Below are positions 1,959 through 64,000 of a DNA stretch of 64,000 bases, piece by piece (position 1 is the first letter of the stretch; each line of letters begins with the position of its first letter). Origin of the DNA: Bacteroidales bacterium (GTDB lineage Bacteria > Bacteroidota > Bacteroidia > Bacteroidales > Paludibacteraceae); the NCBI GenBank assembly GCA_012837935.1, contig DUQG01000032.1, positions 36,527 through 100,526 on the forward strand, given 5' to 3'. The notes under the pieces were generated by a model. That model did not search any database, had not been told where the DNA came from, and was given only the letters and a program-made list of their open reading frames with translations. A program made the translations under genes and the position numbers.

Positions 1959-2278
1959 AATAAAAAACCGCATTGTTATCTGTTGAGAAAACTCCTGTAA
2001 ACAGGATTTGAGGCAATCGGTTCTCTCTGTAATCTGCCGTTCGTCCTCAGACGAATACCCAAAGGCGCAGCCCGCCATTAAAAACCTTTGTATCTCGGTA
2101 AAAATTGTGTGTTGAGTTTTCCAATCTCTAAACAATACGGTATTGCAAATATAACAATTTATATTCAACTTTCCTACTAAAAGTATTAAAAAAAGATTAG
2201 AATTTCTTCTTTTTCTCAAAATTAAATTGATAGGTGAAAAAGTGGATGGAATATTTCGCTATGTAAAATAAAAACTTT

Positions 2279-23800: not shown

Positions 23801-23890
23801 AAATTTTTAAATTAATTGGTTGATATAAAGTGTTTTAGTGAATATATAAACGGTTAATAATGAGTTGTTTGTTTTAGGTTGAGCTTTCTA

Positions 23891-24077
23891 AACTTCGTAG
23901 AAGTTTCCTTCACATAACCCCCAATTTTAATTGGGGGAATTTGAATATACGACCGCTTAAACACTGTAAGTGTTTTCCAACTGCGACTTGGGAAACTCTT
24001 ACAGAGTTTTAGCTATGTAGCATTTTCCATCCCCCAGATGAATCTGGGGGTTATTTAAGGGCTTGTCCTACGGACAT
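23891..24077. repeat. Six-hairpin composite element, copy A
   Basis: ACTTCGTAGAAGT / CCCCCAATTTTAATTGGGGG / AAACACTGTAAGTGTTT / AAACTCTTACAGAGTTT / CCCCCAGATGAATCTGGGGG / TGTCCTACGGACA in order. Confidence 0.92.
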
Positions 24078-53341: not shown

Positions 53342-53589
53342 ACACAAATAATTTCTTTTTTTTAAAATCTTATAGTAAATTTGCACCTGATTAAAAAAGT
53401 GGATAGATTTGGACTGCTTGCAACCACTGAAAAAAATGCTAAATTGTAATCACTTTCCGTTTTTTTCTCTTCTACAGTCCTTTATAATCATCCCGTAATT
53501 ATATTTATTAACTATTGTTGGTAAGCTTGTGTAGCTTATTGAACTTATACTTCGAGCTTCATACTTCCAGCTTCAAAATTTAAAACATT

Positions 53590-63325: not shown

Positions 63326-63631
63326 ATGATAACAGACGTAATTAGAAAGGGGAGTTATTACCAAACTCTCAATGATGCTGGTAAAAAAATTAGTGAAAAA
63401 CACGAAAGTTCGATTGGAGAACTTCAAGGTTTTACTGATAAATTTATGGTTTTTCGTAAGGGGAGTTATTTTGCCACTTATGATGAAACTTTTAAAAAAA
63501 TTAGTGAAAAACATGAAAGTCACCTTGGTTTCTTCAAAAATGCAGTGGGTTCTTCAATGATTTTCATTAAAGGGAGTTATGTTGCTACTTACGACGTAAT
63601 GTTTAAAAAAATCAGTGAAAGACACATTTAG
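63326..63631 (+). CDS. Small protein of 37-aa KGSYxxTYD...KKISEKHES repeats
   Basis: VIRKGSYYQTLNDAGKKISEKHESSIGELQGFTDKFM / VFRKGSYFATYDETFKKISEKHESHLGFFKNAVGSSM / IFIKGSYVATYDVMFKKISERHI; followed by a terminator. Confidence 0.72.
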   Translation: MITDVIRKGSYYQTLNDAGKKISEKHESSIGELQGFTDKFMVFRKGSYFATYDETFKKISEKHESHLGFFKNAVGSSMIFIKGSYVATYDVMFKKISERHI

Positions 63632-63668: not shown

Positions 63669-63699
63669 TAATAAAATCACTATTAACCGACTAAATAAT

Positions 63700-63910
63700 T
63701 GTCTGTAGGACAAATCCTTGCATAATCCGCCAAAGGTCGGACAGGCACCCCAGATTTATCTGGGGGATTAGGAAATACTACTTAACGAAACTCTGTAAGA
63801 GTTTCCCACAACCTAAGCAGGGAAACACTTACAGTGTTTATGCCGTACTTTTATTGTCTTTCCCCCCAATTAAATTGGGGGTTATTTACAGGAAACTTCT
63901 ACGAAGTTCA
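63700..63910. repeat. Six-hairpin composite element, copy B (inverted relative to copy A at 23891-24077)
   Basis: Reverse complement reads ACTTCGTAGAAGTTTCC / AACCCCCAATTTAATTGGGG / AAACACTGTAAGTGTTTCC / GGGAAACTCTTACAGAGTTT / CCCCCAGATAAATCTGGGG / TTGTCCTACAG in the same order. Confidence 0.92.
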
Positions 63911-64000
63911 AAAAGCAACCCTATAAGTTTCTAAAACACTTCAAATTGCTTCTTATAAACAGTTTGCATTACAGCAAAATATTTTAGTCGGTCAGTAGTG

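What the first reader, a model, noticed from the sequence alone, without database searches (positions are those of the whole stretch)
23891..24077. Six-hairpin composite element (about 190-210 bp) in two inverted copies, at 23.9 kb and 63.7 kb
Both copies keep the same order of six different short palindromes: ACTTCGTAGAAGT, CCCCCAATT..AATTGGGG, AAACACTGTAAGTGTTT, AAACTCTTACAGAGTTT, CCCCCAGAT..ATCTGGGG, TGTCCTACGGACA. Stems are conserved while spacers diverge (for example ATGAAT vs ATAAAT, TTTTAA vs TTTAA). That pattern suggests a structured RNA/DNA unit rather than a simple duplication. No protein is encoded. Copy A separates the GH89 gene from the next co-oriented gene, so it would lie in an operon leader or spacer; copy B follows the KGSY small protein.
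Basis: partly seen in the sequence, partly recalled or inferred. Interest (0 to 1): 0.82.

Follow-up and report, generated by a model that had tools for sequence, protein, structure and literature searches.

The report
Jumping-gene remnant with six DNA hairpins
The 190-bp unit is a gene-less mobile DNA element: the two three-hairpin ends of a small single-strand-DNA transposon whose transposase gene is missing, scattered about 19 times in this Bacteroidota genome; it matters because the transposase subgroup that fits it was reported to lack such ends.

Summary
Both copies keep six hairpins in fixed order, and about 19 full or partial copies lie scattered in this genome. Across 19 aligned copies (14 own, 5 congeneric) stems are 89% identical against 62% outside, with paired changes at 11 base pairs. 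The element is probably not an RNA gene. In a congeneric genome (L076/L149) hairpins 1-3 and 4-6 sit on either side of a Y1 (HUH) transposase gene, so the six-hairpin unit is that transposon's two ends with the gene gone: a REPIN/MITE-like element. The same layout flanks related genes across Bacteroidota: a strict triad on at least one side in 45 of 80 loci, against 2 of 329 control windows. Gene-less copies recur in another genus; one occupies a spacer over 200 bp shorter in three relatives. The transposase carries the Y---Q--HH signature of TnpAY1 subclass 1.2, described as generally lacking IS-like ends and REPs. Copy B is nested in a 323-bp IS4-type MITE (terminal inverted repeats, 9-bp target duplication), a second route of travel. 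New variant of a known kind. Transposition itself, cleavage sites and short-form boundaries are not shown.

The parts
23890..23937 (+). Copy A, outer left part: H1 (AAACTTCGTAGAAGTTT 23890-23906), linker ending ATAA, H2 (CCCCCAATTTTAATTGGGGG 23918-23937)
   Evidence: matches the H1-ATAA-H2 order beside the tnpA gene in L076
23959..24009 (+). Copy A, inner hairpins H3 (23959-23975) and H4 (23993-24009), which can also pair with each other as one long stem; the transposase gene sits between them in the complete element
24031..24076 (+). Copy A, outer right part: H5 (24031-24050), linker starting TTAT, H6 (24064-24076)
63699..63908 (-). Copy B: the same six hairpins, inverted (H6 63699-63713 to H1 63894-63908)
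63678..64000 (-). Long form around copy B: IS4-type MITE with terminal inverted repeats 63678-63695 and 63983-64000
63669..63677 (.). Left 9-bp target duplication TAATAAAAT of the long form; the same 9 bp follow the element at the start of contig C59 (the join is inferred)
63726..63747 (.). 22-bp insert TCCGCCAAAGGTCGGACAGGCA between H6 and H5, shared by most own long-form copies

Best explanation
The element is a non-autonomous mobile DNA. It consists of the left end (H1-H3) and right end (H4-H6) of a small transposon of the Y1/HUH single-strand-DNA type, with the transposase gene absent from between them; it is the REPIN/MITE counterpart of a TnpAY1 subclass 1.2 transposase. Shown by sequence: the two-ended layout around the gene, gene-less copies in two genera, structural constraint on the hairpins, dispersal, and one spacer that is much shorter in relatives. 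Inferred: a subclass 1.2 transposase recognises the folded hairpins when the DNA is single-stranded, cuts near them and joins the two ends, so that gene-less copies spread in trans; the near-invariant ATAA at the foot of H2 (TTAT after H5) is my candidate for the guide or cleavage sequence. Some copies, copy B among them, also travel as cargo of an IS4-type MITE moved by a DDE transposase that leaves 9-bp duplications. In this draft genome no transposase with matching ends was found, so the copies may be orphans that now depend on the IS4 route.
For: A Y1 gene between H1-H3 and H4-H6 in a congeneric genome. Three-hairpin ends in 45 of 80 relatives on at least one side against 2 of 329 distal windows, 3/78 and 4/77 in the wrong orientation, 1 of 775 shuffles, with constant spacing and about 40 different stem sequences. 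About 19 dispersed copies in fixed order. Paired changes at 11 pairs, 23 cells against a shuffled mean of 5.8. Gene-less six-hairpin copies in a complete genome of another genus, one at a spacer that is over 200 bp shorter in three relatives. Partner protein matches Y1_Tnp and the IS200/IS605 model and solved ISDra2/IS608 transposases. Terminal repeats and 9-bp duplications of the long form, with the same repeat upstream of an IS4-family transposase in G004.
Against: No transposition event, cut site or clean joint was seen; the boundaries of the short form are not resolved. No transposase with matching ends in the own draft genome (best 34% identity). The triad rule was relaxed once after inspecting first results, and more distant Y---Q--HH proteins mostly lack the triad (6 of 34). 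Subclass 1.2 was assigned by signature, not by a tree with the reference set. Hairpin arms can also be kept alike by template-switch repair, without selection.
Confidence: 0.83

Rival explanations
1. Only the IS4-type MITE is mobile in this genus; the six-hairpin core is its passive, structured cargo and was not moved by a Y1 transposase here.
For: Terminal repeats and 9-bp duplications on long-form copies; the nearly identical copies at contig ends are all long forms; no matching Y1 transposase in the own genome.
Against: Short forms without recognisable IS4-type repeats exist in the own genome (L002, L004, L005, L009) and gene-less copies exist in G008 with other flanks; the core equals the ends of a Y1 element.
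Confidence: 0.1
2. A structured RNA or mRNA-processing element (operon spacer, stabiliser, terminator) is the selected function, and dispersal is secondary, as has been proposed for REPs.
For: Covariation; ten of sixteen copies lie between co-oriented genes; two terminator-like hairpins in copy A.
Against: No Rfam match; mixed direction relative to flanking genes; both strands fold alike; terminator-like sites face away from the genes at copy A; hairpins bracket a transposase gene.
Confidence: 0.05
3. The palindromes are protein-binding sites, for instance for a replication protein such as DnaA at the linkers, and spread because the host keeps them.
For: The linker consensus TGTGnATAA is the reverse complement of the DnaA-box consensus TTATnCACA as quoted in PMC6006769; the ATA part was imposed by the search rule, the TGTG part was not.
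Against: Only 12 of 55 linkers match TGTGNATA[AG] fully; the unit is dispersed and nested in another mobile element; its layout is tied to tnpA genes.
Confidence: 0.02

Closest known systems
REPINs / BIMEs of RAYT (TnpA-REP) transposases (PMC3116915; PMC6006769)
   Same: Short intergenic repeats in inverted pairs, foldable in single-stranded DNA, compensatory changes, variable spacer, beside a low-copy Y1 transposase gene
   Different: Three hairpins per half instead of one REP each; linker ATAA instead of a GTAG/GTGG foot; partner protein is IS200-like with Y---Q--HH and falls below the NCBIfam RAYT model
IS200/IS605 insertion sequences and their gene-less derivatives (PATEs; PMC7290912, PMC3119063, titles and abstracts only)
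   Same: Y1/HUH transposase, hairpins at both ends, gene-less copies with both ends
   Different: IS200/IS605 ends carry one subterminal hairpin each; here three per end, the two ends mirror each other, and the gene is low-copy
TnpAY1 subclass 1.2 (PMC6006769)
   Same: Y---Q--HH signature in 79 of 80 relatives, Bacteroidota, low copy number
   Different: Described as generally without typical terminal IS200 structures and without REPs; a clade of it has elaborate ends here
IS4-family MITEs
   Same: The long form has terminal inverted repeats and 9-bp duplications; the same repeat lies upstream of an IS4-family transposase in G004
   Different: It carries the six-hairpin core as cargo

Membership tests
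REPIN (RAYT-associated REP doublet) | Two inverted palindromic units forming a hairpin or clover in single-stranded DNA, dispersed in intergenic space | tested here: met
REPIN (RAYT-associated REP doublet) | GTAG or GTGG tetranucleotide at the foot of the hairpin | tested here: not met
   Linkers end in ATAA; no GTAG/GTGG foot in the aligned copies
REPIN (RAYT-associated REP doublet) | Partner transposase belongs to the RAYT family | tested here: not met
   NCBIfam RAYT model NF047646 not reached by L076/L075; IS200/IS605 model is
IS200/IS605 family element | Y1 HUH transposase of the family | tested here: met
   Pfam Y1_Tnp 79.5 bits, NF033573 64.4 bits over a cut-off of 55; ISDra2/IS608 structures by sequence. 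Concerns the complete element in G004, not the window copies
IS200/IS605 family element | One subterminal hairpin at each end, strand-specific cleavage at tetranucleotides, insertion without target duplication | tested here: inconclusive
   Three hairpins per end; cleavage and joints not determined
TnpAY1 subclass 1.2 transposase (partner) | Y---Q--HH signature, Cyanobacteria/Bacteroidota, low copy number | tested here: met
   79 of 80 relatives carry the signature; low copy per genome; no tree with the reference set was made
IS4-family MITE (long form, copy B) | Terminal inverted repeats, target duplication, no transposase gene, same repeats on a complete IS | tested here: met
   Repeats 63678-63695 / 63983-64000; 9-bp duplications; IS4 transposase downstream of the same repeat in G004:C156; that IS is cut by a contig end
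Known structured RNA family (Rfam 15) | Match at gathering threshold | tested here: not met
   No match at either copy

The most novel reading that the evidence does not exclude
A clade of TnpAY1 subclass 1.2 runs its own single-strand-DNA mobility system with mirror-image three-hairpin ends and a conserved TGTGnATAA linker at the hairpin foot. The linker's match to the DnaA-box consensus would tie cutting to replication initiation or fork passage, a coupling I do not know for IS200 or RAYT elements.
Probability: 0.1. Interest if true: 0.8.

Novelty: new variant of a known kind. Interest (0 to 1): 0.6.

Why it matters
TnpAY1 subclass 1.2 was published as an IS200-like group that generally lacks IS-type ends and has no REPs, leaving its substrate open. 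The finding gives a concrete DNA substrate (three hairpins per end, fixed spacing, conserved linker) and dispersed gene-less copies, so binding, cutting and mobility can be tested directly. It may also account for many palindromic intergenic repeats in Bacteroidota, and shows an element of one transposition chemistry carried inside a MITE of another.

Tried and rejected
Y1 genes of the own genome (seven Y1_Tnp loci) as the partner: their flanking hairpins differ. Structured RNA: no Rfam match, no orientation bias. Terminator or attenuator for the GH89 operon: the terminator-like hairpins of copy A face away from the flanking genes. Comparison site for copy A in congeners: the neighbouring gene is not conserved. 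A first, stricter triad rule (perfect stems, outer loops of 3 only) gave 8/78 and 9/77 against 2/329 and was relaxed; controls were re-run with the relaxed rule. G-U versus Watson-Crick changes as an RNA/DNA discriminator: undecided (16 changes to G-T against 18 Watson-Crick double changes). Plasmid collection: no match. A fragment of a transposase-like ORF next to the terminal repeat in G007 had no Pfam match; its relative in G004 settled the family. Structure prediction and covariance-model searches were not run.

Full report
What is there. Copy A (23890-24076) and copy B (63699-63908, inverted) each hold six short palindromes in the same order. The halves mirror each other: an outer hairpin with loop GTA, a linker ending in ATAA, a C-rich middle hairpin, about 20 nt, an inner hairpin with loop GTA; then the same inverted (loops TAC, linker TTAT). 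Copy A folds far better than shuffles on both strands, and its inner hairpins H3 and H4 can also pair with each other, as in the hairpin and clover forms proposed for REPINs (PMC3116915).

How many. A DNA search of the own genome finds 25 places, about 19 separate full or partial copies once contig-end halves are joined. Full copies keep the order H1-H6; partial ones only lose hairpins. Across 14 own and 5 congeneric copies, stem columns are 89% identical and the rest 62%. In the stated structure 95.6% of cells pair, and 11 pairs carry changes on both sides (23 cells; shuffled mean 5.8, none of 500 as high; slid structures at most 7). Copies are related, so the shuffle count is not a probability.

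What it comes from. In a congeneric genome (G004, contig C323; the same locus is L149, a Porphyromonadaceae MAG) the order is H1-H2-H3, a Y1_Tnp gene, H4-H5-H6, with middle hairpins and linkers closely matching those of the window copies. The six-hairpin unit is therefore the left and right end of such an element without its gene. Among 80 named relatives of the transposase, a three-hairpin rule is met upstream in 27/78, downstream in 30/77 and on either side in 45/80, against 2/329 distal windows, 3/78 and 4/77 in the wrong orientation and 1/775 shuffles. Spacing is constant while the stems take about 40 different sequences. The rule was shaped on some of these loci and relaxed once after the first result, so the rates describe this clade and are not a blind test. 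More distant transposases with the same signature mostly lack the triad (6/34), and a second, small set of close relatives gave 4/11.

Generality and insertion. In G008, another genus with a complete genome, the gene carries the same kind of ends and gene-less six-hairpin copies lie elsewhere. At one of them three relatives have adjoining genes with a spacer more than 200 bp shorter. The exact joint could not be aligned, so this shows presence/absence, not a clean insertion.

The partner protein. It matches Pfam Y1_Tnp and the NCBIfam IS200/IS605 model, not the REP-associated model, and solved ISDra2 and IS608 transposases. 79 of 80 relatives carry Y---Q--HH, the signature of TnpAY1 subclass 1.2, described as generally without typical IS200 end structures, with no REPs and low copy number (PMC6006769). 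A later description of ends for this subclass was not found in the held papers; that library covers open-licence papers only.

A second vehicle. Copy B is the core of a 323-bp unit with terminal repeats CACTATTAACCGACTAAA / TTTAGTCGGTCAGTAGTG. Long-form copies have 9-bp duplications: AATATCAAT and ATTTTTAAT, exact within one contig each; ATTTTATTA and ATTTTATTT, exact across contig ends C53/C59 and C54/C76, where the join is inferred. In G004:C156 the same repeat lies upstream of an IS4-family transposase. So some copies move, or moved, as MITE cargo.

Mechanism. Shown: layout, dispersal, structural constraint, a shorter spacer in relatives, nesting. Inferred: recognition of the folded ends by a subclass 1.2 TnpA on single-stranded DNA, cutting guided by ATAA/TTAT, spread in trans. 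The own genome shows no transposase with matching ends (best 34%), so the copies may be orphans; the draft assembly (85 contigs) could hide one.

Probably not an RNA gene. There is no Rfam match, both strands fold alike, direction relative to co-oriented genes is mixed (4 same, 6 opposite), and the terminator-like sites of copy A face away from the flanking genes. An effect on mRNA as a by-product, as reported for REPs, stays possible.

Verdict. A new variant of a known kind: REPIN/MITE-like elements with three-hairpin ends, tied to a clade of a transposase subgroup thought to lack ends.

Noticed in passing
L149-L228 flanks; linkers of the triads: The linker between outer and middle hairpin has consensus TGTGnATAA, the reverse complement of the DnaA-box consensus TTATnCACA (the ATA part was imposed by the search rule).
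   Followed up: partly
L245 (G008), around the six-hairpin copy: This copy also lies inside an inverted-repeat frame (AACGTGAGTTCGATATAAG / CTTATATCGAACTCACGTT), as if nesting in MITEs recurs.
   Followed up: no
L037/L075 (G020), 1000-1260 of L075: A tandem array of right-end-like units (CCCCCAGATAAATCTGAGGGTTATATATAAAGGCATACTCTTTA) stands upstream of the tnpA gene.
   Followed up: no
window 63326-63631: 101-aa ORF with three KGSY repeats (KGSYYQTLNDAGKKISEKHES...), no Pfam match.
   Followed up: no
window 1960-2142 (-) and 53393-53452 (+): Rfam matches: Bacteroidales-1 RNA (suggested 6S) and a SAM-II riboswitch.
   Followed up: no
G000 contigs C53 end / C59 start and C54 end / C76 start: Contigs break inside nearly identical long-form copies; matching 9-bp duplications suggest C53 joins C59 and C54 joins C76.
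   Followed up: partly
L028-L029 and L031-L032 (own genome): Other Y1 genes of the genome are flanked by hairpin families of their own, such as CCACGCCTTTTAAGGCGTGG, GGCGGGATTTGTAATCCCGCC and CAGTCGGTTGGGAAACCGACTG.
   Followed up: no
L013 (own genome), inside H2: One copy carries an insert with its own palindrome (AGCCCCATCTAAATCTTCCCCACAAGGGAAGACTTG) within the middle hairpin.
   Followed up: no
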